Of a stretch of 64,000 bases of DNA, positions 1 to 15,830 are shown piece after piece. Each line of letters opens with the position of its first letter. Position 1 is the first letter of the stretch. Source of the stretch: Clostridia bacterium. GTDB taxonomy: Bacteria > Bacillota > Clostridia > Christensenellales > Borkfalkiaceae. A program made the position numbers and the translations under genes. The stretch covers positions 92,012-156,011 of the forward strand of contig JAFYTO010000011.1 of NCBI GenBank assembly GCA_017558825.1, written 5' to 3'. The notes beneath the pieces are model-generated. The model was not told the DNA's origin, did no database searches, and saw only the letters and a list, made by a program, of their open reading frames with translations.

Positions 1-1167
1 GAAGAACAAAAACCTACGGCAACCGTTAACAGCGTATATGCTGGAGACAACTGTTTTGCCATTATAGAATTAGATGGTTTAGGTATAAACGCTGGCACGT
101 ATAATGCAACTGCAACGTTGAATAACAGTAACTACAAGTTGGCATCTACTTCTAGCTCCACGTCTTTCAATATTACAAAAAAATCGCTTACTATAACTGC
201 AAATTCTCACGCGATTACTTATGGTGATACCCCTTCAAATGCGGGTATAACATATTCAAAAGATTTTGTGAATGGCGAAGACTATACAGTTTTAGACGGT
301 TCTTTAAATTATAGTTACAGTTATTCAAAAAACGACCCGGTAGGAAATTACACTATTAGGATTTCTGGACTTGAAGCAGACAATTATGCTATAACTTATA
401 AGCAAGGTCTTTTAACTGTAAAAGAAAAAGAAATATCTGTTAATATCGATGATAAAACCAGCATATACGGAGCTAATATAGAACAACTCACGTCAAGCAT
501 TGTTGAAGGAGCTCTCGTTGCGAGCGATTCCGAACCTTATAAATTAACAACTGTTGCAAAATCTACGTCTAACGTTGGCAACTATGCAATTAGAGGAACA
601 ATTACAAATGCAAACTATAAAGTTAATTTTATAGAAGGCACTTATAAAATAACCAAGGCAACACTTACTGTACAAGCTACTAGCAAAACAGAAGTAACAT
701 ATGGTTTTACAGGTACTATACCTTATAACTTTAGCGCATCAACAAATAACGGAAAGACAGCTACGGTTACTGGATATAGTAGTGTTAATTCTAAAACAAA
801 TGTTGGCGAGTATAGTTATGACGTTAATTACGATACAATAAATTACAACATGGTAAAGGTAAACGTAAATAACTTTAAGGTAGTAGTTAATCCAAAAGCA
901 GTAACACTTTCTTGGAATCCTTTATCTTCTTACACTTTAACAAATTACACCCAATTAAAGCCGTTAGTTGCAGGTGCACTTATAAGTGATTTAAATTTAA
1001 CTTACACTTATAATGCTGTAAGTGGGCAAGGTGGAATGGTTGAAAATAATGCTCCTTTAAGAAATGGTAAATATATTGTAATTGTGAGTTTAAATAATGC
1101 AAACTACTTATTACAAGGCTCTTTGTCGACAGAGTTTACAATAAACACACCAGTAGTAACTGAATAA
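1..1167 (+). CDS. MBG-repeat extracellular protein, 3' part
   Basis: The reading frame is open from the first base, so the gene begins before the window; 388 residues of its C-terminal part are visible. They form repeated beta-rich units of the MBG type, each opening with a Y-G pattern (for example AITYGDTPS, SIYGANIE, VTYGFTGT) and closing with an N-Y-x-x-x-F/Y segment followed by I-T-K/V-K. Such repeats occur in large secreted or surface adhesin-like proteins of Firmicutes and Bacteroidetes. The protein ends soon after the last repeat (FTINTPVVTE) with no LPxTG motif and no C-terminal membrane segment, so any anchor must lie upstream or be absent. The next gene starts 24 bases later with its own ribosome binding site, so they may share a transcript. 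Function is unknown beyond probable surface location. Confidence 0.8.
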   Translation, partial: EEQKPTATVNSVYAGDNCFAIIELDGLGINAGTYNATATLNNSNYKLASTSSSTSFNITKKSLTITANSHAITYGDTPSNAGITYSKDFVNGEDYTVLDGSLNYSYSYSKNDPVGNYTIRISGLEADNYAITYKQGLLTVKEKEISVNIDDKTSIYGANIEQLTSSIVEGALVASDSEPYKLTTVAKSTSNVGNYAIRGTITNANYKVNFIEGTYKITKATLTVQATSKTEVTYGFTGTIPYNFSASTNNGKTATVTGYSSVNSKTNVGEYSYDVNYDTINYNMVKVNVNNFKVVVNPKAVTLSWNPLSSYTLTNYTQLKPLVAGALISDLNLTYTYNAVSGQGGMVENNAPLRNGKYIVIVSLNNANYLLQGSLSTEFTINTPVVTE

Positions 1168-1191: not shown

Positions 1192-2352
1192 ATGAAATGC
1201 ACTCAAATTAACTGTGGCAAAAAATTTGAAAAATCATTAATATTATATAACGGAGCTTTAGTTTGCCCTCATTGTAAAAAAGAACTAACAGTAGTTTCAG
1301 ATTTTAAAATTACTGAGAGAAATCAAGAAATATATAATTTGTCCGAGTTATATTTGCATAGATATCTTTCCCCAAAATCTCAAGATGAAACAAGGGGAGC
1401 CGTTATTAAATTAAGGGCTAATGAAATGATAGGATTGGCAATAGATAACTGTAACACTGCCGCAAAAGAAGGCAATCCGTATGCCGTTTATAGAATGGGA
1501 TATTATAACGAGTATTTTTTAGAGTCGCAACGTGGCGAAACGGACAGAATTCGCGTAGCGTTCAACTATTATTCATCACTTTGTTATAGTGAGGCAAAGA
1601 AAGTTAAAGTAGAGCAAGGGGCTTCGGCAATGAGCGAAGAAGAGTTCGAAAGGCTCAAGCGCCAAGCCGCAATCGCTTTATTAACTCTTTATGACCGTTA
1701 TCCTCAGGCATTAAAAGGCTCTACGAGATATGATTATGAAAAAAACAAGCAACGTATAACAAGCATTTACGGAGATTTGCCGGTCGAAGTAAATTTAGCA
1801 AAAAAACGTGCTAGCGGACATACTCAAAACGTGTTTAGAATTTTATTATCGTGTTTAAATAGAAATAGAGCACCACTTTGGGGTTTGTTTTTGCTTACGG
1901 GTTCAGAGTTAAAAAGTTTATTTTTAATGAAAAAAGACCAAAGGGAAAAGAAGCCAGAGCTTTATAAATTAATATCAAAAGGAGTACATCTTAGATATTT
2001 GCCGTGTGACTCTGAGGGTGTTATAGCAAAAGATTTGGAAGATAGATATTTTATAAATTTTCCAAACAATGAAGAAAGAGTTAAAGAAATGCTACAAGAT
2101 ATAAAAGACGATGAAAATTTGTATCTTTACTTATTTAATACAAAGGGCGGACACGAATATTTGTCGGCATCACAAATTAAAAAAATTGGCATTAAACTGG
2201 CAAGTAACTCGTACGAGTCAGTATGTTCTTTAATAGACTATTCTGCACAGGAATATTTATTTTTTGATGATGATATTTTTGTTTATAAAAGAGGCATTAA
2301 AATAGAAAAATGCGTAGACGTTTTAATTGAAAAAATTTCGGGAGATGAATAA
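1192..2352 (+). CDS. Hypothetical zinc-ribbon protein
   Basis: I do not recognise a full-length family for this 386-residue protein. The N-terminus has two cysteine pairs, C3/C8 (C-x4-C) and C25/C28 (CPHC), which suggest a small treble-clef or zinc-ribbon metal site. Residues about 70-115 (NEMIGLAIDNC..AAKEGNPYAVYRMGYY) look like a Sel1/TPR-like helical repeat. The rest is soluble, with no signal peptide or membrane segment. The start ATG follows an AAAGGAAA ribosome binding site. It is the first gene of a tight block (1192-12321) whose members are spaced by 1-24 bases, so it probably works with the coiled-coil protein, peptidase-like protein, helicase and AAA ATPase downstream. An adaptor or sensor role is only a guess. 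Confidence 0.7.
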   Translation: MKCTQINCGKKFEKSLILYNGALVCPHCKKELTVVSDFKITERNQEIYNLSELYLHRYLSPKSQDETRGAVIKLRANEMIGLAIDNCNTAAKEGNPYAVYRMGYYNEYFLESQRGETDRIRVAFNYYSSLCYSEAKKVKVEQGASAMSEEEFERLKRQAAIALLTLYDRYPQALKGSTRYDYEKNKQRITSIYGDLPVEVNLAKKRASGHTQNVFRILLSCLNRNRAPLWGLFLLTGSELKSLFLMKKDQREKKPELYKLISKGVHLRYLPCDSEGVIAKDLEDRYFINFPNNEERVKEMLQDIKDDENLYLYLFNTKGGHEYLSASQIKKIGIKLASNSYESVCSLIDYSAQEYLFFDDDIFVYKRGIKIEKCVDVLIEKISGDE

Positions 2353-2353
2353 G

Positions 2354-3853
2354 ATGGATATAAAAAATATTGTAAATTGTTTTGAAGCAAACGGAATTGT
2401 TTATCCACGTGAGTTTATTACTATTGAAAAGGACGGTTGTGACAAGGTTTTTGAAGACGTATATAAGAAAACCCTTAAAAGAATAGATGCTCTAGTTAGA
2501 TTTGGAAGCAATAATGGTTTTAATGCCGACCTTAAAACAGGAATAGCAAAATTGGTTAAAATAATGTGCACTATTAGCAAAGAAAAACGTGTTAAGTTGC
2601 ACGATAAGTTTTTAGCAGAATCAAATAAAATCTATAGCGAAATGGGGAATAGTATGAAAGAAGTAAATGTCCAATTTGATATGGTAGGAAAAGTAAACAC
2701 CTATATTGAAAAATACAAGCTAGGCATGGAAGTGCTTTTAGATATGGATGTGGCCTCAGACCGTAAGACGGTATTACATAAAGGCATAGAAAAATGCAAG
2801 CAAATGCAAAGTATATTAGCTGATGTTATGAATAATTCTACGGCATCAGCCTTAGAGCAAGCAAAAGAAATTATTAAAGAATTGCAAGCATGGGCAGATA
2901 TCGTTGCTAACAAGATGCATGATGATGCAGATTTAATTCATTTAGACAAAGCTATTGCAATTTCAAAACAATGGAAAAACAATAGAGAAGTTGTAAAAGC
3001 AGGAATGTTTGGAAAAACCAATAAGGTTGCAGACATTAAGGAACTCGAATTTTTAGAAGACAATCTTTCTATGATTGGCAAAAGTAGAGATGCTACTAGA
3101 GAAATTGGCATCTTTATGCAAAATCTTAAAGAATACAAAGAACAAGTTGTAGGCAATGGTCCAGAAAAAATAAAAGAAGAAATAGAGCTTAAAAAAGAAG
3201 AAAGCTCTAAACTTAAAGCAAAAAAAGATGATTTAGTTGTACAGTTCCAAAACGGCGAAATTTCGAAAATGGATTTATATGAAGAATGTATGGATATAGA
3301 TAATGAAATGGCGGACGTTAAGGAAGATATTGAAGACCTTCAATATAAATATAACAATGATAAAGAGGCCTATAGGCTTACAAAAAAAGTTCTTGACAAT
3401 TTAAATTCTATTAACAGTCAAGTTTTAGAATACAAAGCAGACCCTATATATTTTGGTTTATTGGCTGATGAGCTTGATTTTAGCAAGTTAACTAGAGTGA
3501 TGCGCGGGGCTGGAAATACGGAAGACGTAGACTATATTTTTGACGTTCAAAGTATTTTGGATAGAGTTAAAGATAGAAGGCGTAAAATTGAAAGAGAAAT
3601 GACAGACGCTATTAGAAAGAGACACGAGGCTAGAAATGCTGAGCGCAGACAAGAAAGGCAAGCTCGCTTATCAGCGCAAATGAATGGTCGTGAAAACGAA
3701 AGAAGCGAAACTGAAGCAATGGCAGAAGATTACATAAATCAACTTCTTGGACAGACAAAAGCTACTGAAAACACTGAAAATGATAGTGTTAAAAAGAAGG
3801 AAGATATAGCAGAAGAGAATACAAGAATCGCATTAGGCGATGATGAATTATAA
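2354..3853 (+). CDS. Hypothetical coiled-coil protein
   Basis: A 499-residue, highly charged, almost wholly helical cytoplasmic protein. The clearest coiled coil is about residues 275-350 (PEKIKEEIELKKEES..KAKKDDL, then EECMDIDNEMADVKEDIEDLQ); a second very basic segment (RRRKIEREMTDAIRKRHEARNAERRQERQ) precedes an acidic tail ending GDDEL. A TTG at 2327 is in frame, but the ATG at 2354 lies one base after the previous stop and nine bases from a GGGAG site, so I chose 2354. No enzymatic motif is visible. The basic-then-acidic C-terminal layout and short helix EDYINQLL near the end resemble the tails of filament-forming substrates recognised by Vps4-like ATPases, but this is inference from layout only. 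Confidence 0.7.
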   Translation: MDIKNIVNCFEANGIVYPREFITIEKDGCDKVFEDVYKKTLKRIDALVRFGSNNGFNADLKTGIAKLVKIMCTISKEKRVKLHDKFLAESNKIYSEMGNSMKEVNVQFDMVGKVNTYIEKYKLGMEVLLDMDVASDRKTVLHKGIEKCKQMQSILADVMNNSTASALEQAKEIIKELQAWADIVANKMHDDADLIHLDKAIAISKQWKNNREVVKAGMFGKTNKVADIKELEFLEDNLSMIGKSRDATREIGIFMQNLKEYKEQVVGNGPEKIKEEIELKKEESSKLKAKKDDLVVQFQNGEISKMDLYEECMDIDNEMADVKEDIEDLQYKYNNDKEAYRLTKKVLDNLNSINSQVLEYKADPIYFGLLADELDFSKLTRVMRGAGNTEDVDYIFDVQSILDRVKDRRRKIEREMTDAIRKRHEARNAERRQERQARLSAQMNGRENERSETEAMAEDYINQLLGQTKATENTENDSVKKKEDIAEENTRIALGDDEL

Positions 3854-3861
3854 TAGTAAAA

Positions 3862-5817
3862 ATGATTATTCCTGAGGCAATAGACTACGTTAATACTTTA
3901 TATTATAAAAGCATAGATGTTCAAACTCTTAGTGAAGGGGTTGAAATTTTGCAAGACATATTAACAAATAAGCAACCACGTGCAAATTTTAAAAAAAATG
4001 CGGAAGCTCTTTTATATCGTCTTACAGCTAAAATCCTTGCCTTAAAATATTTTGATGAAGGGTATTTAGAGGAAGATTATATTATACTTAAACAGCAAAT
4101 TGCCGAATTTATTGTTAAGGTTGAGCAAGAAGGGTATTTAAAAACAGTTACGTTATTAAAAAATCTTTTAGAAGTTGCTGAAAGTGTACATTCGGTAATG
4201 GATGGCTTAGATGCTGAAATTTGTCGCATGCAAGATGAAAATGGAAACCCTACAACCTCCGACCAAATAGAGATTGAAAAATTTGCAATTTATTTTAGAA
4301 GCAAAGCAGAAGCATTGTCTAACGTAAAAGACACGGCAACGCTTTTTGGCGAAAACGTGGCCATGAAAGATATTAAGGCCTGTGCCATAAAAGACGTTTT
4401 AGACGTTGCTATATGGGCTGAAAATATATTAAAAGCTTCTACTTCAATGGAAAAAGAGAAATTCTTTAACGAGAATTTGCAGTTGCTTGAAGAACAAGAT
4501 GGGCTTAAAATTTTTAAATATTATCCTCCTATTTTAGAAAAGGAGAAAAATGCATCTAAAGTAACGGTTATTATGTCTCCGTTTATAGATGAAGTTATTT
4601 TGTATGCTCGTGCTTATGAAAAAGAAAGGGGTATTAGTTTTTCAATAATTAACGCTTCTGCATTTATAGGTAAAGCAGATAGTTTTATTAAGGAAGTATT
4701 TGATAGCTTAGGCGAAAAAAATTCGAATATTATAATCACTGGAATTCACTTTTACAATTATCAAAACAAAAGTGCGTTAGTAGAAAACGTTTTATATTAT
4801 TCAAAACAGTTTGGCGAAGTGTTTTTAATTGATGAATACGGCGATAGAAGTATTTACGATTTTGCGTACGATATAATAAAACAAAAAGAAGATTTATCTT
4901 ATAGTGATATTTCATATAGATATTTAACTATGCCAAACTACAATTTTGTTGTTTCCGAAATGGAAGAGATTGGCATGATAAACGCTTCCGAATATGCTTA
5001 TATAAAAAATAAAATGGCGTTTATGGGTTACGTTGGGCTCAACGTTGCGTATTCTTTATTTATGCAAGAAAGGCAATGGAAAGATGATGTTATAGATATT
5101 TCTAGGCGCCACGAGGCTGAATGTCAAACATATCTAAGAAGAATACCATCACAACAACAATTTATTGACGTAGGTTGGAAGCATTTAGAGCTTAGTTATA
5201 ACGCTCGCTCAAGAAAAGAGAATTTTGATTACGATTCTATAAAAGACGTTAATATTAACAATATTAAAAAAATACTATCTTCTTCAAGCACTCTTTTTGC
5301 AAAATGTGGACTTATAGTAAAATATTGCGTTTTGGCCGGAGATGACGTTTCTTCTTGGGAAAGAGTTGAAAAGGGAGTAAAAGAGGGGCGAATTAATAAT
5401 GCAACGAAGTTAGTAGCGCATCTTTTAGATTGCGAAAATGAGCCTGAAGTAAAAATAATTTCATTGGACGAGTGGGAATCAAAAGGCGCAGGAGCTCTTT
5501 GTTGCGATGGCGGAAAACGCATATTATACAGGGAAGATTGTTGTAATGACGTTGCTTGGTTAATGGATGCCATTTGCCACGAATGTTATCACTCGTTTCA
5601 ACACACTTTACAACATAGAGGCTGGCAAAAATGGCATTGGATGGAGCTTGGCGTAACAGAATATCGCGTTCCTGAATGGGACTATAATTTTGGTAAATAC
5701 AAATCAGCAGGGTCGCAAGCGTACGCTATACAAGTTGTAGAAAGCGATGCTAGAACATTTGCAAACGACTGTCTTATGCAAGGAGAAGAGAGTTGGCAAA
5801 CTGTTGATTGGGAGTAG
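3862..5817 (+). CDS. Protein with C-terminal HExxH metallopeptidase-like domain
   Basis: A 651-residue soluble protein. About 480 N-terminal residues are mostly helical and match no family I know. The last 130 residues contain a zinc-protease signature, HECYH at 573-577, preceded by CCNDVAWLMDAI and followed by E-x-x-A-like candidates for the third ligand in VVESDARTF. A CCDGGKRILYRED strand just before it resembles the edge strand of gluzincin folds. No signal peptide is present, so it would act in the cytoplasm, like ImmA-type or phage-like peptidases. It starts 8 bases after the coiled-coil gene and ends 2 bases before the helicase, implying translational coupling. The ribosome binding site is weak. 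Substrate unknown; a neighbour in the operon is a reasonable first guess. Confidence 0.7.
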   Translation: MIIPEAIDYVNTLYYKSIDVQTLSEGVEILQDILTNKQPRANFKKNAEALLYRLTAKILALKYFDEGYLEEDYIILKQQIAEFIVKVEQEGYLKTVTLLKNLLEVAESVHSVMDGLDAEICRMQDENGNPTTSDQIEIEKFAIYFRSKAEALSNVKDTATLFGENVAMKDIKACAIKDVLDVAIWAENILKASTSMEKEKFFNENLQLLEEQDGLKIFKYYPPILEKEKNASKVTVIMSPFIDEVILYARAYEKERGISFSIINASAFIGKADSFIKEVFDSLGEKNSNIIITGIHFYNYQNKSALVENVLYYSKQFGEVFLIDEYGDRSIYDFAYDIIKQKEDLSYSDISYRYLTMPNYNFVVSEMEEIGMINASEYAYIKNKMAFMGYVGLNVAYSLFMQERQWKDDVIDISRRHEAECQTYLRRIPSQQQFIDVGWKHLELSYNARSRKENFDYDSIKDVNINNIKKILSSSSTLFAKCGLIVKYCVLAGDDVSSWERVEKGVKEGRINNATKLVAHLLDCENEPEVKIISLDEWESKGAGALCCDGGKRILYREDCCNDVAWLMDAICHECYHSFQHTLQHRGWQKWHWMELGVTEYRVPEWDYNFGKYKSAGSQAYAIQVVESDARTFANDCLMQGEESWQTVDWE

Positions 5818-5819
5818 GC

Positions 5820-8800
5820 ATGAATAAAATTAGTGAAAATATAGAGGCGTTTACAATAGACCTTTTACATATAAACGATATTTCAAGCAATAAACTGATT
5901 GATTTATATGCTGGAGATTTAAGTAAAACCTTTTTTATTTCTCACCCAACAAGAGATAATTTAAGTAAATACGTTTTAGAAATTATTTCTGCCAGAATAG
6001 GAAAAGTGGGAAATACCGTATTATTGCAAAGTGCAATTGCAAATAAAAGTGAGCAAATTTTAGGTAAAGATATAAATGATTTAGCTTGGCAAGATGCTAA
6101 AGGCAATACTGATGCCGTTGCACTTCATAAATACATTGAAAACGTATATAAAGAGTTAGACCTTAGGGGAAACAATCCATTATTTTTTAGCGTGGGCGCA
6201 ATAACGTGGAAAGTTGCTAGCAAAGAATATTCCATTAAAGAAGTTACATCTCCACTTTTACTTTTTCCTATAAAATTTATTCGCTCCACAAGCAAAACAA
6301 CTCCAATTTATATAGAATTTGTTTGTGATGACATCTATATAAATCCTTGTTTTTTGGCGGTCTTGCGACAAATGGCAGGAGATAAAATTGTTGAAGATTT
6401 TCCACATCCCAACCAAAGCGTGTGCGACGTAGATTGCCCTATTAACATTGATTATTTAGGCAATGGCGAAGCATATTTTGCAAAGGTGGAGGAGTACGTT
6501 AGTTCGCAATGTAGATCAGATATTAGTAGTGATACTACGTTTAAATTTGATAAAAATATTGTTGCAATATCTCAATATAATCACGATGAATTGTGTATGT
6601 ATTATGATATAAAGCGCAATAAAGAAAAGATATATTCTCACCCTCTTATAAATAGAATTTTTAGCAAGGGTGAGCCTTACCAAGAAGTTGATTATTCAAA
6701 AACAATACCTCAGTTTATAATGCCTAGAGATAGCGTTCAAGAACGTATTGTTAAAAGGGTTGTTGCAGGGCAGTCTTTAATAGTTAAAGGCCCTCCAGGA
6801 ACGGGTAAAACGGTTACTATTACTAACTTAATAGCTTCCTTATTAGCGCAAAATAAAAAAATTCTTTTGTCATCTCAAAAGTCTGCGGCTATGTTTGAAG
6901 TGTATGCTAAATTGCCACCGTCTATTCGCAAGTTTGTAATGCTTTTAGATAGTGAAACAGAGGCTCAAGCTTCAAAACTTAACGTTGTTGATGTAAAAAA
7001 AGAATTCAATCAACTTTTAAGCGATAGAAAAAATCACACTTTTTCGGCTGACAAATACGATGATTATGAATGTGGCAATAGGGAAATTGCTTCTACTATT
7101 GCAACTATAAAAAACTACCGAGAACTTATGTTTGACAACAAAGATGTTGTGGGCAGGAGTTATTATTCGGCGTTAGACACTATATGTAAATATGATATAG
7201 ACCCAATCTTGTTTATGAATTCTAATGATGCCTGCAATATGACGTCTAAAGAATTTTCATATTATGCAAATTTGGTAAACGAGGCTGGCGAATGGCTTGA
7301 TAAGGCAGCTTTAGACCACGAACTTATAAAAAGTCCTTGGTATCCAATAAACGGCAGTTTAGACGGCGTAGAAATTGAGAAGGTTGTTGAATATAACGGC
7401 AAGCTTTCTAATGCTATAAGTGAACTTGTTGCCGAATGTGAAGGCGTTGAAGGCTTACAGAGTAAATGGTATAAAAATATCTCAATTTCAGTTCTTGATT
7501 GCGTTTTAGAACAGCCTTTAGATGAAGGGCTTCTTAAAACCGTTTCAAACATTGATAATGTAGAGTTGTTAAAATCGGTATGCACAGTATATGAAGAATA
7601 TTTAGCAACGCAAAGTGCTTCAACAGAAATTTCAAATCCGCCAGCTGAAGCTATTGAAAAATATGCTAAAGAGTTAGGGTTATGTAGAATTGATGGAGAT
7701 TTAAAAAAGTCGCAATTCCTAACATTCTACGATAATTCAAACGTAATAGAATTGCTATCAGGGAAAAGTCAATTAGAAGCAATTACTAGCGCCATTAATT
7801 TTGTTGAAGATATAGAGGTTAAGAAGAAGGAATGTTTAGATGAATTCTATTCAATTTTTAGCCCCGATATTTCTAAAGAAAATTTATCACTTATAGAATG
7901 CTCTTTTAAAATATTTAACGCTTACGCTAAAAAAGAGGATTGTATCAAACCAAAGCTTTTAGATTTTAAAACAAAAAAAGCTTATGCGATATTAAATAAG
8001 TTGGGTTATGGCGAAGAGATTTCATTTAAAGATGTTGTAAAAGGCGTTTGCTTATTTAACAACGTAATAAATTTAGATAAAAATTTAGATGGTCTTAAAG
8101 CCAAATTATCTTCTCAATTTAAAATAAAATTAAACGCTCAGCAAATTGAAGCGTTATTCAAGTTTGTAGATAGTTGTAAGAAATCCGAATTAGATATAGC
8201 TAATTGCGTTAAAGATTTTATTGACTGTAAAGATACGATTTTTAATGCAATTAAAGAGTGTAATAGCGATGTTGATTTTACTATTAAAGACTTACTTAAA
8301 ACGTATTTAAAAACAGGAGCGTTTGAAAATCTTGCAGCCGAAACACAACGTTTTGCAGACGCCAATAATATTTTAATAGAAGGCAATAGCGTTGAAAGTT
8401 TTGCAAAAGCCGTATATGGAACAAGCAAAATTTTTGAAAGTTCAGCAGTAGGAAACACTATAGAAGAAGTGCTAAGAAACGGCGGTATAATCTATAATGC
8501 CAAAAACAAATTAAAGCCTTTACTATTTAAAATAAAAGCATTATTATTGGAATTTGAAAAAAATTGTTTTGCATCATTCTATACTGTCAAAAACGAAAAA
8601 TGCTTACTTAAAGAACTAGAACTAATAGTTAAAGAAGGGCAAGATAGAAGTGTGTGCAATGCACTTTGTCAATATTTTAAAGTAGTTAAATGTTCACATG
8701 AAGCGTGTTCATTAGAACGTTTCTTTAGGCCTTTTGAAACAGGATTAAGGGAAAAAGGCAAATATAGCTATAAAAGTATTTTTGAATTTTCAGTCAATTG

Positions 8801-10412
8801 GCTTGCTGTTGAAAACAAGAAAAACTCTATGGGCGAACTTAGAAACGGCTTAAGAGATAAAATTTCTTACGAGTTAAACGATTGGAAAAACGCAATTTCT
8901 CAAATTGATAAGGCAACACTTTCTATAATAGAAGATCAATGCATGGCAAAAATTAATTATAATGACCAAGACTTCAATTTTCTTAAAGCAGAAAAGCAGG
9001 GCGGTCAAAGTCTAAGAAGATTTTTTAAGGAAAATGCCAAAGCTATTCTTAAACTTAAAAAATGCTTTATTTTGTCCCCTTCAACTGCAAGTGTATTTTT
9101 TACAAAAGAAGAATTTAATGATTTTGATATCGTTATTGTTGACGAGGCCAGTCAATTAGAACCAACCTCTATTTTGCCTGTACTTTTTAGGGCCAAACAA
9201 GTTGTACTAATTGGAGACGAGTGGCAAATGCCACCAATTAAACACTTTGCTAATCGTGTAGAAAAGCGTATTGTAGATAGTGAGGGAGAGGTTAAAATAC
9301 TTAGCCCAAACACTTCGGTGCTTGGTTTGGCACTTGATAATTGTGCTTTTCCTGTAGAGCAGTTCATTTGTCATTACAGAAGTAAGGCGGAATCATTAAT
9401 TGCCTTTTCTCAGGAAAAATTTTATCCAAATATGAGAACTTTTCCTGCTAGAGTTCCTAAAGCGGAAGGGTTAGGGTTTAAAGATATTTACGTGCCTGAC
9501 GGATGTTGCGATGGCGGTGTTAACGAAAAAGAAGCTATAGCGGTTGTGAAACAGCTTAAGCTACATTTTGACACTTATTATGATGAAAGCACCAAATCTT
9601 TAAATGGAAGTTCCGTTGGCGTAGTTGCTTTTGGCAAAGAGCAAAAAGACTATATTGAAAGTTTGGTTGCAAAAGATACAGACCTTGCTTCAAAAATTCA
9701 AAAGGCAATTGAAAATTTTGGAGATTTGCCAGAGAAATTAATCTTTTTTAAAACAATTGAAAGTGTTCAAGGTCAAGAGGTTGAGCATCTTATACTTTCT
9801 CTTACTTATGGAAAAAACAAAGAAGGCAAAGTTGTGCAATCGTTTGGCGAGTTAAATAGAGGTTTTAATGAAGACAAGTTAGGGCAATGTATATTTAACG
9901 TTGCCGTTACAAGAGCAAAAAGCTCTATAGCAGTAATCCACTCTATTTTAGCTGAAGAAATTAAATTAGAATCGATTGATTTTATTGGAAAATACTTATC
10001 TATCGTTAACAAGTTTGGCAGTGATGACAATAGAGAACAATGGGTAGGGAAAAAGGTTGATGAAACAACTGGATTTATAAGACAAGTTGCTAACTTTATA
10101 ATTGAAAGTGGTGTAGATGAAAAAAGAATAGTAATTGACTATGGCGTAAATCCAACGTCTATAAAAATACCAATAGTTATTCTTTCTGCAGATTTGACTG
10201 AAGCTGAACTTGGATTGTGGTGTGAAACGGAAGTCTTAGAAAATTCTAATTATTTTGATATTAACGTTAGATATGTTGACAGTTTAGTTGATAGAGGTTG
10301 GAATATTCACAAAATATTTATTCACGATTGGGTTGACAACAGCAAATCTGAAAAAGAAGCGCTAAAAAAAATATTAAAAAAATATGTAAATATAGAAAAC
10401 AGTGAGGTGTAA
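5820..10412 (+). CDS. Superfamily 1 (UPF1/Dna2-like) helicase with degenerate nuclease tail
   Basis: A 1530-residue ATP-dependent nucleic-acid helicase of the AAA_11/AAA_12 type. Motif I is GPPGTGKT (residues 324-331), motif II DEASQ (1108-1112), then a GDEWQMPP motif III, HYRSKAESLI motif IV, a VQGQE motif V and VTRAKS motif VI. About 780 residues separate motifs I and II, a large helical insertion typical of these long bacterial helicases. The last 110 residues (ending ..DRGWNIHKIFIHDWVDN) align by eye with the MTES_1575 / Vsr-like endonuclease domain usually fused to such helicases, but the expected acidic D and E-x-D/K catalytic residues are not where I would place them, so this tail may be inactive. 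ATG 5820 is chosen over TTG 5808 because GGAG lies five bases before it. Confidence 0.88.
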   Translation: MNKISENIEAFTIDLLHINDISSNKLIDLYAGDLSKTFFISHPTRDNLSKYVLEIISARIGKVGNTVLLQSAIANKSEQILGKDINDLAWQDAKGNTDAVALHKYIENVYKELDLRGNNPLFFSVGAITWKVASKEYSIKEVTSPLLLFPIKFIRSTSKTTPIYIEFVCDDIYINPCFLAVLRQMAGDKIVEDFPHPNQSVCDVDCPINIDYLGNGEAYFAKVEEYVSSQCRSDISSDTTFKFDKNIVAISQYNHDELCMYYDIKRNKEKIYSHPLINRIFSKGEPYQEVDYSKTIPQFIMPRDSVQERIVKRVVAGQSLIVKGPPGTGKTVTITNLIASLLAQNKKILLSSQKSAAMFEVYAKLPPSIRKFVMLLDSETEAQASKLNVVDVKKEFNQLLSDRKNHTFSADKYDDYECGNREIASTIATIKNYRELMFDNKDVVGRSYYSALDTICKYDIDPILFMNSNDACNMTSKEFSYYANLVNEAGEWLDKAALDHELIKSPWYPINGSLDGVEIEKVVEYNGKLSNAISELVAECEGVEGLQSKWYKNISISVLDCVLEQPLDEGLLKTVSNIDNVELLKSVCTVYEEYLATQSASTEISNPPAEAIEKYAKELGLCRIDGDLKKSQFLTFYDNSNVIELLSGKSQLEAITSAINFVEDIEVKKKECLDEFYSIFSPDISKENLSLIECSFKIFNAYAKKEDCIKPKLLDFKTKKAYAILNKLGYGEEISFKDVVKGVCLFNNVINLDKNLDGLKAKLSSQFKIKLNAQQIEALFKFVDSCKKSELDIANCVKDFIDCKDTIFNAIKECNSDVDFTIKDLLKTYLKTGAFENLAAETQRFADANNILIEGNSVESFAKAVYGTSKIFESSAVGNTIEEVLRNGGIIYNAKNKLKPLLFKIKALLLEFEKNCFASFYTVKNEKCLLKELELIVKEGQDRSVCNALCQYFKVVKCSHEACSLERFFRPFETGLREKGKYSYKSIFEFSVNWLAVENKKNSMGELRNGLRDKISYELNDWKNAISQIDKATLSIIEDQCMAKINYNDQDFNFLKAEKQGGQSLRRFFKENAKAILKLKKCFILSPSTASVFFTKEEFNDFDIVIVDEASQLEPTSILPVLFRAKQVVLIGDEWQMPPIKHFANRVEKRIVDSEGEVKILSPNTSVLGLALDNCAFPVEQFICHYRSKAESLIAFSQEKFYPNMRTFPARVPKAEGLGFKDIYVPDGCCDGGVNEKEAIAVVKQLKLHFDTYYDESTKSLNGSSVGVVAFGKEQKDYIESLVAKDTDLASKIQKAIENFGDLPEKLIFFKTIESVQGQEVEHLILSLTYGKNKEGKVVQSFGELNRGFNEDKLGQCIFNVAVTRAKSSIAVIHSILAEEIKLESIDFIGKYLSIVNKFGSDDNREQWVGKKVDETTGFIRQVANFIIESGVDEKRIVIDYGVNPTSIKIPIVILSADLTEAELGLWCETEVLENSNYFDINVRYVDSLVDRGWNIHKIFIHDWVDNSKSEKEALKKILKKYVNIENSEV

Positions 10413-10413
10413 T

Positions 10414-11112
10414 ATGGCTGATAAAGAAACTAGATTTAGGTCGGACAGTTTAAATTTATTAAACGAAGAAATTGTTGCAGAGCAACAACAAAGGGAAAAA
10501 GAAAAAATAAGCAAAGCAAGAGAACAAAGTAAAATTGATTTTAGAATCAAGCAAGAACAGTTACTCAATCAGCTTATAGAACTTGAGCAAGAATATGGCG
10601 AAGACTATTATTTAGTGGAAATGCTTTCAACTTTCTATGAGGTTTCCGTTGAAATGGAAAACGTTATGAAGTCAATGGAATCTGTAAACATGGCAATGGA
10701 ATGTATTACAGAAGCTTTAAGTTTTTTAGATTCCACTATTCAGTTTGACCAAAAATTAATGGAGCAATCTAACAGACAAAGCTATTCTTTTATTGCGCGT
10801 TTTAGATTAAGAATGCAAATGCGTAGAACAAGGAAGAATAATATTGGTAGAATGAAAGCCATGGTAGATGGCCTTATGTTTAAATATAGAATGATGGACG
10901 ATATGGTTAAGTCATTAAAGAAATTTGCCCTTACTATGAGCAAGAGCTTTAAAAAGGTTGGCAAAAAGAAAAAGGGCGCCGCCAACGTTGGTCCAACAGA
11001 GGCTCAAAAAAGAATTGCGCAAAGAAAAGCAGAACTTGGAGTTGCCAATAATGCTACTATTACGGAATCTACGGGCACTGATTCTAGTGGCAATTATGAT
11101 GACGTATTATAA
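10414..11112 (+). CDS. Hypothetical basic helical protein
   Basis: A 232-residue protein, predicted all-helical from its heptad-rich sequence, with an acidic/charged N-terminal helix (EEIVAEQQQREKEKISKAREQ), a central methionine-rich helical hairpin, a very basic stretch (RFRLRMQMRRTRKNN .. KKVGKKKKG) and a low-complexity tail ending DDVL. No family recognised. Size, charge pattern and position directly before a Vps4-like AAA ATPase resemble the ESCRT-III / PspA / Vipp1 arrangement, but I cannot show sequence homology. An in-frame codon at 10402 exists; ATG 10414 is preferred because GAGGTG lies upstream and it begins one base after the helicase stop. Confidence 0.7.
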   Translation: MADKETRFRSDSLNLLNEEIVAEQQQREKEKISKAREQSKIDFRIKQEQLLNQLIELEQEYGEDYYLVEMLSTFYEVSVEMENVMKSMESVNMAMECITEALSFLDSTIQFDQKLMEQSNRQSYSFIARFRLRMQMRRTRKNNIGRMKAMVDGLMFKYRMMDDMVKSLKKFALTMSKSFKKVGKKKKGAANVGPTEAQKRIAQRKAELGVANNATITESTGTDSSGNYDDVL

Positions 11113-11133
11113 TTTTAATTGTGGAGAAAGCTT

Positions 11134-12321
11134 ATGAGCGGAATAGGAAAGAAAGGGTATGAAAAAACAACTTCAGACAATAAGAGTTTAGAACAGCTTA
11201 AAAAAGAGTTTGATGAGATAATGGCAAAAATACGTACTCTTATTGGGGCGCGTAAAGACAAAAATCAAATGACTCCTGAAGAAAAAAGAACTTTAAGAAC
11301 AGAGTATAATAATGCTGCCAAAATAGCCAAAAAAATATACGAGCGCGCAGAAAATGACGATGCGTTAGAAGAAAAATATAAAGATTTGCATAAAAGGTGC
11401 TTAGACAAAGCAGAAAGTTATGGATCTATAATGAAAAGAGAAGCTCCAAAAACCACAATGGAAGATATAAAGGGGCAAGAAGACGTTAAGAACTTAATAA
11501 AGTCGTTTGCTTTTATGGCAGACAATCCAGATATTTTAAAATATTATAAAATTCAAGGTGGCTTAGGTCTTTTAATGTACGGAGCGCCTGGAACAGGTAA
11601 AACAATGTTTGCTGAAGCTATTGCTAATAAAATGCAACTTCCACTCTTTGTTGTTACACCAGCAGATATTTTTAAGTCATACGTAGGCGAATCTGAACAG
11701 GCAGTAAAACAACTTTTCCAAGATATTGAAAGTTGTGAAGAGGGCGCAATTCTTTTTGTAGATGAATGTGAATCTATTTTCAGTAAAAGAACAAACGATA
11801 CAAAGGATTATAAAGCAGCGGTTACTACAGAATTATTGCAAAGAATGAATGGTTTTGGCGTTGACGGCTCTAAGCGTATTTTAATTGGCGCAACTAACCG
11901 CCCAGACCAAATAGATCCAGCATATTTAAGATATAAAAGATTTTCTCATATGGTGCATATTACTCCACCAGATGCTACGGCAAGGCGTTCTATTGTAGAA
12001 AGCAAATTGAACGGCATTCCTTTAGCAGATGACGTTACTATTGACGATATTATGTTTATGATGAGTAAAGCTCAATCTACTTACGTAGACGATTATGGCA
12101 AAATGGCGGGAGGAGGCTCTTATTCTTCAGCAGATATATGCGGCATCATTGAAGAAGCATGTCGTCTTGCTCTTGAGAAATTAATGGAAAAAAATTCTAC
12201 AACTCCAATTCCTGTAGGCAGAGAAATGTTTGAAAAGGCTATTGCAAAAAATCCGCCAAGTATCAGTAGAGAAGTGCTGGAAACGTATAATAAATTTAGA
12301 GAATCTATAAACGACAAGTAA
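11134..12321 (+). CDS. Vps4/katanin-like AAA ATPase with MIT-like N-terminus
   Basis: A 395-residue single-domain AAA ATPase. Walker A is GAPGTGKT (150-157), pore-loop region FKSYVGESE, Walker B ILFVDECE (206-213), sensor 1 ATNRPDQIDPAYL, and an arginine finger in RYKRFSH. The C-terminus (REMFEKAIAKNPPSISREVLETYNKF) matches the closing helix of meiotic-clade AAA proteins (Vps4, katanin, spastin). The first 110 residues are helical, and the segment EEKYKDLHKRCLDKAESYGSIMK resembles the last helix of the MIT domain of Vps4 (pattern K-C-x-x-Y-L-D-R-A-E-K-L). Such proteins unfold or disassemble polymers threaded through a hexamer. Start ATG 11134 follows GGAG at seven bases. It closes the operon before a strong terminator; the helical proteins upstream are candidate substrates. 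Confidence 0.85.
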   Translation: MSGIGKKGYEKTTSDNKSLEQLKKEFDEIMAKIRTLIGARKDKNQMTPEEKRTLRTEYNNAAKIAKKIYERAENDDALEEKYKDLHKRCLDKAESYGSIMKREAPKTTMEDIKGQEDVKNLIKSFAFMADNPDILKYYKIQGGLGLLMYGAPGTGKTMFAEAIANKMQLPLFVVTPADIFKSYVGESEQAVKQLFQDIESCEEGAILFVDECESIFSKRTNDTKDYKAAVTTELLQRMNGFGVDGSKRILIGATNRPDQIDPAYLRYKRFSHMVHITPPDATARRSIVESKLNGIPLADDVTIDDIMFMMSKAQSTYVDDYGKMAGGGSYSSADICGIIEEACRLALEKLMEKNSTTPIPVGREMFEKAIAKNPPSISREVLETYNKFRESINDK

Positions 12322-12330
12322 TAAAGAAAT

Positions 12331-12362
12331 AAAAAGTCTGGTATTTAGCGCCAGACTTTTTT
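12331..12362. terminator. Bidirectional intrinsic terminator
   Basis: Stem AAAAGTCTGG / CCAGACTTTT around a nine-base loop, with an A-run before and T-run after. It ends the 1192-12321 operon on the + strand and can also serve the channel gene on the - strand. Confidence 0.9.
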
Positions 12363-12396
12363 ATATTATTTTTTAAGTTAAAGAATAGGTTGCAAA

Positions 12397-14232
12397 TTAA
12401 TATTTTATTAAAACCAATTCGTCTTCTTTATATAATTTTATTTCTTCAAATTTATCCATTTCATCACATAAGAATATAATATCCTTATCGCTTTTATGCT
12501 TAATTCCTATGCACATAGCCGTTTTGTTGGATGCAAAATAAAAAGATTGCACTAGTTCCGACTTGTTAGAAAAAGTAATAAACGATGAATTGAATTCCAA
12601 AACATCTGACACTGTTACAATGTCTAAATCTATGCTATCGGTGCTGTTTTCTTCATTTGTAGATATTAAATCACGGTAGAACTTTTTAGAGCCAGGGTGA
12701 GTTAATAATTGAACCATAAACAAAGATATAATGCGGTTTGAAACTATAACAGACATTACGCCAAAGTTTTGTAATGAATTTAAGTTTGAAGGATTTGTTA
12801 TTTCCGCAAAAATTTCAGTTCTATCATCAATGCAGCCGTTTAATTTAAATGAAAGTGCAGATAAGAAAATGTCTTCATCTTGATTTTTTACACTTGCGTC
12901 ATCAGATGAAAGAAACAATATTTTCTTTTTGCCTGTTGTATTCTTTATTTGTTCAGCTATTTTTTCTATATTTTGATTGTAAGAATATGAACAGCAAGTT
13001 ATTTTTGTATTGTAAAGCTTATTGTATTGGTTTAACTCATCAATAACAAACTTGGAATTTCCTGACTGTGAAAATATGAAAACGGTAAAATTTTCATTTT
13101 CTATTTTATTTTTATAACTTAAAGGCTTAACAAACGACTGTTGATTTTCTCTTTTGCCTAACGTTTGCTTATTGTCAGACAAAATGTATAATTGGTCAAC
13201 GCTTAACTTTCCATTATTGTCCATCTCTTCATCGTCATCGTAATTAATTATTGGAATACAGTCATTGTAAGTGTATAAAGCATCGTCTATATTCATTGGA
13301 GCAATGCCGTAAAATTCGCAACCATCATAAGATAATAAATTATGGTATAGCATGCTAAAAGAAGAATTTATAATGGTTTTTCCTAAGATATGTCCCAAAA
13401 CAGAATTGTGAGAAAATACTATTATTCTTTTGTTCAAATCCTTATTTATGGTGTCTAGCAACTGCTCTATCTTAATAACGGTATCATTATTTTCAGCTTC
13501 TACAACAATGTTTGCTTTTTTAGCAATATTCATTATTGAGAATAATGATTTTAACGCGCTAATATCATTTGCAGACATAGCGTGGCTTTCATCATTTTCT
13601 ATATTGGAAAGCAAAATACCTATGTATTTTGCTTTATCTAAAGATATATCGCTTAAATGCTTAGTAGAATTAGGATCGCCGTTTTTAATAAAAAGCCTAA
13701 TATTTTTCATCTTCTTTTGATTTTCTGTGAAAATATTTTGGATTGAATTTAAAACTGTATCTTTGTCTTCTTCTGTAAGTATAACTATGTTTTTAGAACC
13801 GTCTAAAAAAGATAAATCATACACTAAATGAGCGCCTATAGACGACCAATTTAAAAAAACGTAGTGATTTGCAAGATTGATTTTGCCTAAATTGTTAAGA
13901 CGTTTATCTATTGTAGATTGAAGGATATCTGTAGTAAAACCAATTAAAGCGCCTGAAAATATAACCATTTGAATTACGGTTAAAAATATTTTTATAATGA
14001 AGCACGCCAAATCTTCTTGTTGATTAACAAAGTCATAAATTCCATCTGCACTCATAGTATAAGTGAAAATGTATGCCAGCTCACTAAAAAAGTTATTTCC
14101 AGATATCAGCGATAAAATTGCTGTAAATATAAAAATTACAACAAGATTAATTGCCACTAAAGAAATGGCAATTGCCATTCTTGGATGTGAATACCATAAC
14201 AACATTAATTTATTAGTTTTATCTTTTGTCAT
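12397..14232 (-). CDS. CASTOR/POLLUX-like ion channel with RCK/TrkA-N domains
   Basis: A 611-residue membrane protein. Two hydrophobic segments (about 20-45 and 78-108) frame a short pore-like loop; the sequence then runs through the typical linker (GFTTDILQSTIDKRLNNLGKINLANHYVFLNWSS) into a Rossmann TrkA-N domain, and a second RCK-like half follows (residues about 370-600). The linker pattern is diagnostic of the CASTOR/POLLUX family, channel-like proteins for potassium or calcium in plants and of unknown gating ligand in bacteria. No canonical TVGYGD filter is present, as usual in this family. Start: ATG 14232 lies eight bases after TAGGAGC; the upstream in-frame ATG at 14256 has no such site. 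Monocistronic, with its own promoter. Confidence 0.82.
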   Translation of the reverse strand: MTKDKTNKLMLLWYSHPRMAIAISLVAINLVVIFIFTAILSLISGNNFFSELAYIFTYTMSADGIYDFVNQQEDLACFIIKIFLTVIQMVIFSGALIGFTTDILQSTIDKRLNNLGKINLANHYVFLNWSSIGAHLVYDLSFLDGSKNIVILTEEDKDTVLNSIQNIFTENQKKMKNIRLFIKNGDPNSTKHLSDISLDKAKYIGILLSNIENDESHAMSANDISALKSLFSIMNIAKKANIVVEAENNDTVIKIEQLLDTINKDLNKRIIVFSHNSVLGHILGKTIINSSFSMLYHNLLSYDGCEFYGIAPMNIDDALYTYNDCIPIINYDDDEEMDNNGKLSVDQLYILSDNKQTLGKRENQQSFVKPLSYKNKIENENFTVFIFSQSGNSKFVIDELNQYNKLYNTKITCCSYSYNQNIEKIAEQIKNTTGKKKILFLSSDDASVKNQDEDIFLSALSFKLNGCIDDRTEIFAEITNPSNLNSLQNFGVMSVIVSNRIISLFMVQLLTHPGSKKFYRDLISTNEENSTDSIDLDIVTVSDVLEFNSSFITFSNKSELVQSFYFASNKTAMCIGIKHKSDKDIIFLCDEMDKFEEIKLYKEDELVLIKY

Positions 14233-14319
14233 ATTAGTTGCTCCTAAGTGAAACATTGCCTATTAGTAATATAGAGCAAAATGTAATAATGTAATGCTAT
14301 TTCAATGTTAATTGTCGAT

Positions 14320-14348
14320 ATTATAGCATAAGTTATAAAAAAATACAA
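14320..14348 (-). promoter_or_regulatory. Promoter of channel gene
   Basis: On the - strand, TTGTAT (14343-14348), 17-base spacer, TATAAT (14320-14325), about 85 bases before the ATG at 14232. Confidence 0.65.
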
Positions 14349-14414
14349 TATTTAAAATTTAATTTAAACGTTTCAAAAAAGCAAAATTTTTTGCTTGCTT
14401 TTTTAATTTTTGCC

Positions 14415-14443
14415 TTGACTTTACCTTGCACATAATGTATCAT
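14415..14443 (+). promoter_or_regulatory. Promoter of the 14544 metabolic operon
   Basis: TTGACT (14415-14420), 17-base spacer, TATCAT (14438-14443), followed by a leader of about 95 bases that contains an AAAGCAG...CTGCTTT hairpin (14467-14502) before the ribosome binding site. Confidence 0.65.
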
Positions 14444-14543
14444 ATAACATAGTTATATAGTCACGCAAAAAAAGCAGGTAAACCCTAAAAAATTCTGCTT
14501 TAAAGTGTAAAAATTACGTAGATTTGCTTGTGGAGAGTATTTT

Positions 14544-15830
14544 ATGTTTGAGAAAGGTTTATTATTTGAAAACGATTTTCAAAAACAATTAAAATCACAA
14601 TTTTATAACGTTGATGCGGACCCTACATTTGGCGAGCGTATATTCTTTGAAAATTCCGGCGGTTCGTTAAGGCTTAAAGCTTGTGTTGAAAAGAAAGCGG
14701 AAATTGAAGCCTTTCCAGACTGTCCTGAGCGTATTCACGCACGTTCACTTTATTTAAAAGGTTTAGTAGAAACGGGAACAAAGGAAATTTTAGAAATTAT
14801 ATTCGGCGCAAAAAGCGGCGCTTTAATGACCGAACTTACCGCATCTCAAACAATGTTCCAGCTCGTTGGCATTATTATGGAAAACGTGCCTGGCAAAAAC
14901 GCGGTAGTTTCTTCAATAGAGCACCCTTCCGCTTACGACGCTATTGAATATTATTGCAATAAAACGGGTAGAGAAATGCGCGTTGTGCCTGCAAACACAA
15001 AAACAGGCGGCATTGACGTTGACGAAGTTATTAAATTAGTTGATAAAGATACGGCGCTTTTAAGCATTATGTCTGCTTCTAACATATCCGGCAATATTAT
15101 GGATATTAAGGAAATTGTTAGGCGCGCCCGTGAAATTAAGCCGGACTTATTTATTATTAGTGATATGGTGCAACACGCGCCGCACTGCGCAATGGACGTT
15201 GACGAACTTGGTTTAGACGGCGCTAACTTTGCTCCATACAAATTCTTTGGTTTACGCGGCTGTGGTTTTTGTTACGTTTCAGATAGAGTTGCAAAATTCC
15301 CACACCACAAATTGCTTGCAAAACCGCAAGAAGTTTTTGAACTTGGTACGTCTGCTCCCGCTAATTTTGCAGCCGTTATGGAAATTATAAATTACGTTTG
15401 CTCTATCGGCGAGCATTATATTGGCAAAAAGTCAAGAAAAGAAACTTACCGCGAAGGTATGAGAAGAATTCACCTTCAAGAAAGGGCGCTTTTATATAGA
15501 CTACTTGAAGGCACTGACGAAGTTAAAGGTTTAAGGCACATAGACGGCGTAACCGTTTACGTTGATACGGAAGATATTACGCAAAAAGACTTGATTATTG
15601 CTATGGGTATTGACGGTGTTGACTTTACTAAAACTGTTGCGGAATATCAAAAGCGTGGCGTAACCGTATATGAAAGAATTAATACAAGCATTTACTCAAA
15701 GCGTATTGTTGAAGCGATTGGAATTGAGGGGGCAATAAGGGTTTCGCCACTTCATTGCCATGGCGTAGAAGATATTGACAAGTTCTTAAAAATTACCGCT
15801 CAAATGGTGGAAGATTTTAAAAACAACTAA
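14544..15830 (+). CDS. Class V aminotransferase-fold PLP enzyme
   Basis: 428 residues, the usual length of cysteine desulfurase/aminotransferase class V proteins. The PLP lysine is K233 in YKFFG; upstream are SIEHPSAYD (substrate/PLP ring region), SASNISGNIMDI and the PLP aspartate in ISDMVQHAPH. The family catalyses transamination, C-S or C-N cleavage; the absence of a recognisable flexible Cys loop near the C-terminus argues against a classical desulfurase. It opens an operon with a ceramidase-like hydrolase, YjbQ-family protein, sugar kinase, transporter and isomerase, so an amino-sugar or amino-alcohol substrate is plausible. ATG follows TGGAGAG. Confidence 0.82.
   Translation: MFEKGLLFENDFQKQLKSQFYNVDADPTFGERIFFENSGGSLRLKACVEKKAEIEAFPDCPERIHARSLYLKGLVETGTKEILEIIFGAKSGALMTELTASQTMFQLVGIIMENVPGKNAVVSSIEHPSAYDAIEYYCNKTGREMRVVPANTKTGGIDVDEVIKLVDKDTALLSIMSASNISGNIMDIKEIVRRAREIKPDLFIISDMVQHAPHCAMDVDELGLDGANFAPYKFFGLRGCGFCYVSDRVAKFPHHKLLAKPQEVFELGTSAPANFAAVMEIINYVCSIGEHYIGKKSRKETYREGMRRIHLQERALLYRLLEGTDEVKGLRHIDGVTVYVDTEDITQKDLIIAMGIDGVDFTKTVAEYQKRGVTVYERINTSIYSKRIVEAIGIEGAIRVSPLHCHGVEDIDKFLKITAQMVEDFKNN

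What the first reader, a model, noticed from the sequence alone, without database searches (positions are those of the whole stretch)
1192..12321. Undescribed operon built around a Vps4-like AAA ATPase, a giant helicase, an HExxH protein and coiled-coil proteins
Six genes are spaced by 1-21 bases and end at one terminator, so they are expressed together. Seen: zinc-ribbon protein, charged coiled-coil protein, C-terminal HExxH protein, superfamily 1 helicase, basic helical protein, meiotic-clade AAA ATPase. I know no named system with this set. Helicase plus peptidase plus AAA ATPase is the kind of mix found in antiphage or nucleoprotein-remodelling systems; the AAA plus helical partners also resemble ESCRT-like polymer handling. 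Both readings are inference.
Basis: partly seen in the sequence, partly recalled or inferred. Interest (0 to 1): 0.82.

Follow-up and report, generated by a model that had tools for sequence, protein, structure and literature searches.

The report
Modular ten-gene Clostridia defence-like cassette
The six genes are the second part of a ten-gene cassette that lies in largely the same order in dozens of Clostridia genomes, many from animal guts, and is absent from many of their close relatives; it likely works as an ATP-driven, envelope-anchored machine against foreign DNA, and it matches no named system that we searched.

Summary
The operon is real and longer than described. Four co-directional genes precede it, giving a 21.5-kb, ten-gene cassette A-J: Hsp70-like ATPase, SNF2 helicase, Cys-rich protein, TM/MBG-repeat protein, zinc-ribbon protein, coiled coil F, G, SF1 helicase H, coiled coil I, AAA ATPase J. 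Homologues are co-located in 28 of the 29 loci of one scan; three modules (A-E; F/I/J; G-H) can come apart. G is predicted to be FtsH-like, with a dead AAA module and an intact HExxH...E zinc site; J is an intact AAA ATPase. Coiled coil I, and sometimes F, ends in a conserved C-terminal motif (29 of 34 I tails; pattern set after seeing them). One genome has a spare protein of J N-domain repeats and extra motifs on H. The cassette is patchy (G in 17, C in 30 of 396 genomes of the order), with empty sites in one genus. Pfam, PADLOC, NCBIfam and paper searches gave no named match for the set. Defence is the best guess (about 0.45), not shown. No MIT or ESCRT-III likeness was detected by sequence.

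The parts
1..1167 (+). D (3' part; the gene runs from window -2699, = L006 15313-19179, 1288 aa): N-terminal TM segments, then Ig/MBG repeats. A (L006 8855-10795, ASKHA/Hsp70-like), B (10816-13653, SNF2) and C (13658-15295, Cys-rich) lie just left of the window on the same strand
   Evidence: MBG_2 65.8 bits, cut-off 25; 4 hydropathy segments here; 5 in 15 of the 19 full-length D listed
1192..2352 (+). E: N-terminal zinc ribbon, perhaps Sel1-like repeats, 386 aa
   Evidence: Sel1 only E 0.0077, under cut-off, in the G065 copy
2354..3853 (+). F: coiled-coil protein with charged tail, about 500 aa (starts ATG 2345 or 2354)
   Evidence: no Pfam family for it
3862..5817 (+). G: helical N-domain, AAA-like module without Walker motifs (residues about 195-430), C-terminal zincin HExxH (573-577) with E627, 651 aa
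5820..10412 (+). H: superfamily 1 helicase (DUF4011-type) with a C-terminal Vsr-like domain that looks inactive, 1530 aa
10414..11112 (+). I: three long helices in the model, low-confidence tail ending YDDVL, 232 aa
11134..12321 (+). J: AAA ATPase with its own N-domain, Walker A/B and arginine finger intact, about 395 aa
12331..12361 (+). intrinsic-terminator-like stem-loop with T tail ending the operon

Best explanation
Ten adjacent genes A-J, of which the finding saw the last six, form one conserved and modular cassette of Clostridia that likely acts as an envelope-anchored, ATP-driven defence machine against foreign DNA, in which the AAA ATPase J is predicted to be recruited by the C-terminal tails of coiled coils I and F and would power partner G, predicted to combine a dead AAA module with a metalloprotease domain. 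Shown: gene order and modularity; catalytic motifs of A, B, H and J; in G, absence of Walker motifs with retention of HExxH and a downstream Glu; the conserved tails. Predicted by model: G's FtsH-like fold; I's long helices. Inferred: D (TM segments, repeats presumed outside) anchors the complex; B and H move along foreign nucleic acid or strip proteins from it; F and I are the scaffold; J's N-domain reads their tails; J and G together unfold and cut a protein target, i.e. a FtsH split over two polypeptides. No nuclease domain passes a Pfam cut-off in the ten proteins, so the output would be proteolysis or remodelling rather than DNA cutting.
Against: No function was tested. The profile comparison of G with J gave probability 2.8%, so the AAA reading of G rests on the predicted fold. 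No docking of J's N-domain with the tails was modelled. G and H are missing where F, I and J persist, so G cannot be J's obligate partner. L052, which also has a spare N-domain, lacks the motif on its I tail, as do L038, L048, L056 and a second I of G284. J's and B's defence matches come from a defence-only library; in a general one J is nearest CDC48 and CdvC. The cassette is in 13 of 17 genomes of genus g88 (by C), with the same downstream genes in the 3 fetched, which I think unusual for defence. No relatives on plasmids, phage records (69) or viral contigs (27). PADLOC was run on 9 flank proteins picked by eye in 4 genomes (8 had some match, 1 none), with no background rate. A surface-repeat protein is unusual for defence.
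Confidence: 0.36

Rival explanations
1. A physiological envelope apparatus, not defence: D is the working surface protein and the cytoplasmic ATPases assemble, regulate or turn over it, or link the envelope to chromosome or RNA polymerase handling.
For: D-E are present in 23 of 25 loci that reach them, D with TM segments and repeats; C, the marker used, is in 13 of 17 genomes of genus g88, with the same downstream genes in G154, G209 and G284; A-E can stand alone (G062).
Against: Patchy at genus level elsewhere (2 of 9; 10 of 20) with empty sites; H's nearest general-library models are anti-phage proteins; L048 and L056 keep F-J without D.
Confidence: 0.32
2. ESCRT-like polymer handling: J is a Vps4 that takes apart filaments of I and F on the membrane.
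For: AAA plus long-helix partners with C-terminal tails; J's N-domain also occurs as stand-alone repeats, as adaptors of this kind would; weak Vps4_C match; weak Foldseek likeness of I to BAR-type membrane proteins (best E 0.067, not significant).
Against: No MIT match for J's N-domain and no ESCRT-III match for I by sequence; J's best solved relatives are p97-type; two helicases are hard to place in such a machine.
Confidence: 0.1
3. Tail-cleavage signalling: G cuts the conserved C-terminal ends off F and I, much as the metallopeptidases of FxSxx-COOH pairs are described to do (PMC7159879, passages read).
For: HExxH and E627 in 46 of 46 rows; conserved C-terminal ends after low-confidence linkers.
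Against: The tails stay conserved in genomes without G (G154, G209, G355), so G is not what reads them there.
Confidence: 0.08

Closest known systems
FtsH (AAA-zincin protease, M41)
   Same: G has an AAA-like module followed by a zincin, and FtsH is its best Foldseek match
   Different: G lacks Walker A/B, has no TM segment by hydropathy, and its likely third zinc ligand is a Glu 50 residues after HExxH; the intact AAA (J) is a separate protein
FtsH-ternary MoxR-vWA conflict systems (PMC7159879, passages read)
   Same: pairing of an inactive with an active FtsH-type AAA domain, association with zincin-like peptidases
   Different: no MoxR or vWA found here; the inactive module carries the protease and sits on its own protein
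Hhe / ProA / PDC-S37 helicases (DUF4011 type)
   Same: H matches them best (PDC-S37 3e-111; ProA 364.4 and Hhe 268.1 bits)
   Different: far below the curated cut-offs (1500, 2000); C-terminal nuclease-like domain looks inactive; nine partner genes
BREX / DISARM (BrxH, DrmD)
   Same: large multi-gene cassette with a SNF2-type helicase; B matches BrxH 1e-30 and DrmD 2e-28 in a defence-only library
   Different: no methyltransferase, PglZ, BrxC or DrmB match among the PADLOC rows shown for the ten proteins (for B 25 of 53 rows shown)
IetAS
   Same: J matches IetA models (3e-33); AAA plus protease logic
   Different: IteA equivalog cut-off 510, J scores 97.8; the protease here is a zincin, not the serine protease I recall for IetS
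Vps4/CdvC with ESCRT-III; VPS4-like ATPases moved into bacteria (PMC11237479, passages read)
   Same: single-ring type AAA ATPase with a separate N-domain and weak Vps4_C
   Different: no MIT or ESCRT-III detected by sequence; the bacterial cases described there pair with a TPR/6TM protein

Membership tests
FtsH (M41) | AAA domain followed by zincin in one chain | tested here: inconclusive
   predicted fold only; profile comparison with J 2.8%
FtsH (M41) | active Walker A/B | tested here: not met
   [ST]P[FLI]xx[DE] instead of Walker A in 47 of 47 rows; no row has D-E at the Walker B place, L044 and L047/L012 have E-E
FtsH (M41) | HExxH zinc site | tested here: met
   46 of 46 rows
FtsH (M41) | N-terminal membrane anchor | tested here: not met
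   no hydropathy segment in the window's G
Hhe / ProA equivalogs | score over the NCBIfam cut-off | tested here: not met
   268.1 of 2000 and 364.4 of 1500 bits
Hhe / ProA-type helicases | active Vsr/MTES_1575 nuclease | tested here: inconclusive
   23.4 bits under cut-off 38.2; Pro in 26 of 26 rows where I recall the catalytic Asp (the reference motif comes from no call)
IetAS | IetA equivalog score | tested here: not met
   97.8 of 510 bits
BREX | BrxC/PglZ/PglX core | tested here: not met
   none among the PADLOC rows shown for the ten proteins (for B 25 of 53 rows shown)
DISARM | DrmA + DrmB + DUF1998 | tested here: not met
   B matches DrmD and more weakly DrmA (1.1e-14); no DrmB among the rows shown, no DUF1998 among the Pfam rows shown
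ESCRT (Vps4/CdvC) | MIT domain on the AAA ATPase | tested here: inconclusive
   no MIT among the Pfam or PDB sequence matches shown for 20 N-domains (25 of 62 Pfam families shown); that domain's fold was not predicted
ESCRT (Vps4/CdvC) | ESCRT-III/Snf7 partner | tested here: inconclusive
   no match by sequence among rows shown; fold comparison of I unclear
Meiotic-clade AAA | Vps4_C element and grouping with Vps4/katanin/spastin | tested here: inconclusive
   Vps4_C 21.7 against 21.3 bits; best PDB relatives p97/VCP-type; no tree of AAA families made
ASKHA/Hsp70 (gene A) | phosphate-1, phosphate-2 and adenosine motifs | tested here: met
   LDLGxDT, FDMGE and SGGxxET-type stretches in the aligned copies (L064 copy cut at its start; motif names recalled); Pfam HSP70 only 14 bits, cut-off 20.6
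Any defence system | protects against phage or plasmid | not testable with these tools
   needs an experiment

The most novel reading that the evidence does not exclude
A new class of prokaryotic conflict system: a membrane-tethered, nuclease-free machine built on a split FtsH, with motor (J) and protease on a dead AAA chassis (G) as separate proteins, aimed by a C-terminal tail code on two coiled-coil scaffolds and fed by exchangeable helicase modules (A-E with SNF2; G-H with SF1).
Probability: 0.18. Interest if true: 0.86.

Novelty: new variant of a known kind. Interest (0 to 1): 0.68.

Why it matters
If right, it adds a multi-module ATPase system to the repertoire of uncultured Clostridia, and it offers a separable AAA motor, a dead-AAA protease and a tail code that can each be tested alone. 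Even if it is not defence, a ten-gene cassette with fixed order, three separable modules and empty sites in close relatives is an accessory machine for which our searches found no name.

Tried and rejected
Rejected: that the operon is six genes. That J's N-domain is a recognisable MIT domain or I a recognisable ESCRT-III by sequence. The fold list for I holds long-helix proteins (ABC transporter helices, PI3K p85, SMC arms, BAR types), no Foldseek E under 0.001 and no ESCRT-III row among those shown; that excludes nothing. That G and J are close relatives by sequence (2.8%). That F or I are TelA-like: no such Pfam match among rows shown. That the set is ARMADA or DISARM/Druantia as described in PMC12458937 (outline and passages), BREX-related (PMC12839542, passages) or a MoxR/GTPase conflict system (PMC7159879, passages).

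Led nowhere: genome-contig scan with the single G sequence (21 pattern matches, none confirmed); viral-contig scan (37 pattern matches, none confirmed); plasmid and phage searches. Class search with G: 8 of 391, the own genome and 7 local zincin matches of 18-40 bits. Phylum search: 4 of 398, the own genome and 3 local matches, two of them in proteins that I read as CtpA-like proteases and take as chance. Class search with C: 1 of 255, the own genome. C was not found in the genomes of L048 and L056 (no positive control, completeness unknown). Paper searches were read as listings; of papers only the outline and passages named here were seen.

Dropped rows: L063 (zincin only) from the 29 loci; G326 (18.9-bit zincin match) from the 18 of 396; L045's contig-cut I from the tail counts; tails identical to one already counted. 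The printouts were cut in the middle; statements on flanks rest on what was shown.

Full report
The observation. The six genes are there. On the + strand, E (1192-2352), F (2354-3853; ATG 2345 also possible), G (3862-5817), H (5820-10412), I (10414-11112) and J (11134-12321) are separated by 1, 8, 2, 1 and 21 bases and are followed by a terminator-like stem-loop at 12331-12361. Pfam finds helicase domains in H (AAA_11 72.5 bits, AAA_12 46.2, DUF4011 29.0) and AAA in J (117 bits), and nothing over its cut-off in E, F, G or I.

The operon is longer. The window's first 1167 bases are the end of a 1288-aa gene D that stops 24 bases before E. The contig to the left shows A, B, C and D on the same strand with gaps of 20, 4 and 17 bases. 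A is an ASKHA/Hsp70-like ATPase (Pfam HSP70 14 bits, below cut-off, but with the phosphate and adenosine stretches conserved). B is a SNF2-type helicase with Walker A, DEAH and motif VI. C is Cys-rich without a Pfam family. D has hydrophobic segments at its start, five in 15 of the 19 full-length D listed and four here, then repeats; MBG models pass their cut-off in 4 of the 6 full-length D scanned. D is the only one of the ten with such segments. From A to J the cassette spans 21.5 kb.

Conservation. Sixteen G proteins were found among 5.8 billion (about 8,000 best word matches scored). A profile of G found 29 loci in GTDB genome contigs, 28 of them true members; by record title most are Clostridia, many from gut or faecal samples, one is Oscillospiraceae (L048), one Bacilli (L056), one plain Firmicutes (L036). 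Searching their open frames with profiles of A-J shows one order: H after G in 28 of 28; I after H in 25 of 25 and J after I in 24 of 24 where the locus reaches (in L052 and L055 behind a small extra gene); F before G in 25 of 28 (two cut by contig ends, one with 0.7 kb and no hit); D-E before F in 23 of 25; B-C in 17 of 19. L054 and L058 have two G in a row. A precedes B in 10 of 10 genomes where the left end was fetched. I saw no gene shared across the set outside A and J; this was by eye, and the printout was cut.

Modules. A profile of C rings in 30 of 396 genomes of the order, G in 18 of 396, one of which (G326) is a local zincin match; all 17 true G genomes have C, and 13 have C without G. 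I fetched 7 of those 13: G154, G209 and G284 have A-B-C-D-E-F-I-J without G-H; G374 has a diverged form; G062 has A-E alone; G355 is rearranged, with I-J ahead of A; G182 runs off the contig in D. Conversely L048 and L056 have F-G-H-I-J without A-E, and C was not found elsewhere in their genomes (no positive control). In a tree of H plus J from 25 cassettes L048 sits beside L052, which has B-E, so there the loss looks derived. The units A-E, F/I/J and G-H can therefore come apart.

Distribution. The own genus has the cassette in 2 of 9 genomes (G000 and, by G, G002), genus g117 in 10 of 20, genus g88 in 13 of 17, the last two by C. In g117 the cassette lies between a small membrane-protein gene after PGK and the gene before a Sua5-like gene (names by my reading). 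I fetched 6 of the 10 genomes without C: in 4 these flanks are next to each other, in 2 unrelated genes sit there; in G1210 and G1211 the same flanks are 21 kb apart with C between them. That is the pattern of an accessory insertion. No relative of G was found in plasmids, phage records or viral contigs, nor of I in plasmids.

J, I, F. J keeps Walker A, Walker B and the arginine finger in the 21 aligned rows. Its N-domain of about 100 residues has no convincing Pfam or PDB sequence match. In L055 a separate protein next to J holds two clear and one weak copy of this domain, and L052 has a 93-aa protein that is one copy. I is modelled as three long helices with a low-confidence tail (mean pLDDT 75). 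Its C-terminus carries [ILVFYG][DSNTG]D[IVL][ILVTA] in 29 of 34 distinct tails (0.08 expected after shuffling the last 50 residues); the same motif ends F in 5 of 33 (0.06 expected); 21 of 33 F tails end in another acidic pattern (0.32 expected). The patterns were written after looking at the tails, and the I pattern was widened to take in five later tails, of which two fit the first, narrower one; so the odds are too kind. Still, G284 shows F and I ending IDDIIF and IDDITFM, and L055, with spare N-domains, has an H with two DDIL motifs near its end. Against this, L052 also has a spare N-domain but no motif on its I. That J's N-domain reads these tails is an inference.

H. Its top NCBIfam models are the anti-phage proteins ProA (364.4 bits, cut-off 1500) and Hhe (268.1, cut-off 2000); in PADLOC it is PDC-S37. 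The Vsr-like end has Pro where I recall the catalytic Asp, in 26 of 26 rows, so cutting is doubtful.

Function. For defence: H's nearest models, patchiness, empty sites, module exchange, and defence genes beside some copies: a Fic gene and a type IIG restriction gene 3-8 kb upstream in the own genome, a gene with HEC-06/Orf5/SspE matches 39 bases after J in G423, JAB-like and PDC-M30A genes 2-11 kb after J in G314 (9 flank proteins of 4 genomes were picked by eye for PADLOC, one without a match). B and J match defence families only in a defence-only library; in NCBIfam J is nearest CDC48 and CdvC. Against: D, 13 of 17 in g88, absence from mobile collections, no background rate for flanks. I put defence at about 0.45. 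In the best-supported mechanism D anchors the machine, B and H work on nucleic acid, F and I scaffold, J is drawn in by their tails, and J with G unfolds and cuts a protein. Only the parts marked as shown are shown.

Known systems. PADLOC, NCBIfam and Pfam gave single remote matches and no set (NCBIfam was run on E-J only). The closest printed logic that I saw is the FtsH-ternary conflict systems with an inactive and an active FtsH-type domain (PMC7159879, passages) and VPS4-like ATPases moved into bacteria (PMC11237479, passages). My paper searches found no description of this set; that library lacks most subscription papers.

Noticed in passing
L006 1254-5995 (about 3-8 kb left of gene A): Fic-like gene (PDC-S04/SoFic), type IIG restriction-methyltransferase (1107.8 bits) and a gene whose start looks AbiH-like (recalled; PADLOC gave only weak SspB/Cas10b matches), in a row upstream of the cassette
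   Followed up: partly
L075 9380-11239 (-): gene with HEC-06/Orf5/SspE matches (DUF262-like, recalled) starting 39 bases after J in genome G423
   Followed up: partly
L069 8998-14597 and 15937-17808: conflict-like genes (JAB-like, SspH-like, PDC-M30A) about 2-11 kb after J in genome G314
   Followed up: partly
L055 7053-7919; L052 17456-17737: stand-alone proteins made of copies of J's N-domain
   Followed up: yes
L026, L028, L029, L030, L031, L033, L084: zincin domains related to the end of G in other proteins, some with TM-like starts, one beside a conjugation-type ATPase, one beside an HNH-like gene (my reading)
   Followed up: no
L133, L134: the cassette's site in genus g117 holds other genes in two genomes, so it may be an insertion hot spot
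   Followed up: partly
L009 11108-18225: row of five similar lipoprotein-like genes with WG-type repeats (recalled) downstream of the G065 cassette
   Followed up: no
window 12397-14256 (-): 619-aa membrane protein that looks like an ion channel with TrkA-type domains (recalled), facing the operon
   Followed up: no
L056 18366-20474: BspA/LRR_5-like protein (by eye) directly after J in a minimal F-J form, where D is missing
   Followed up: no
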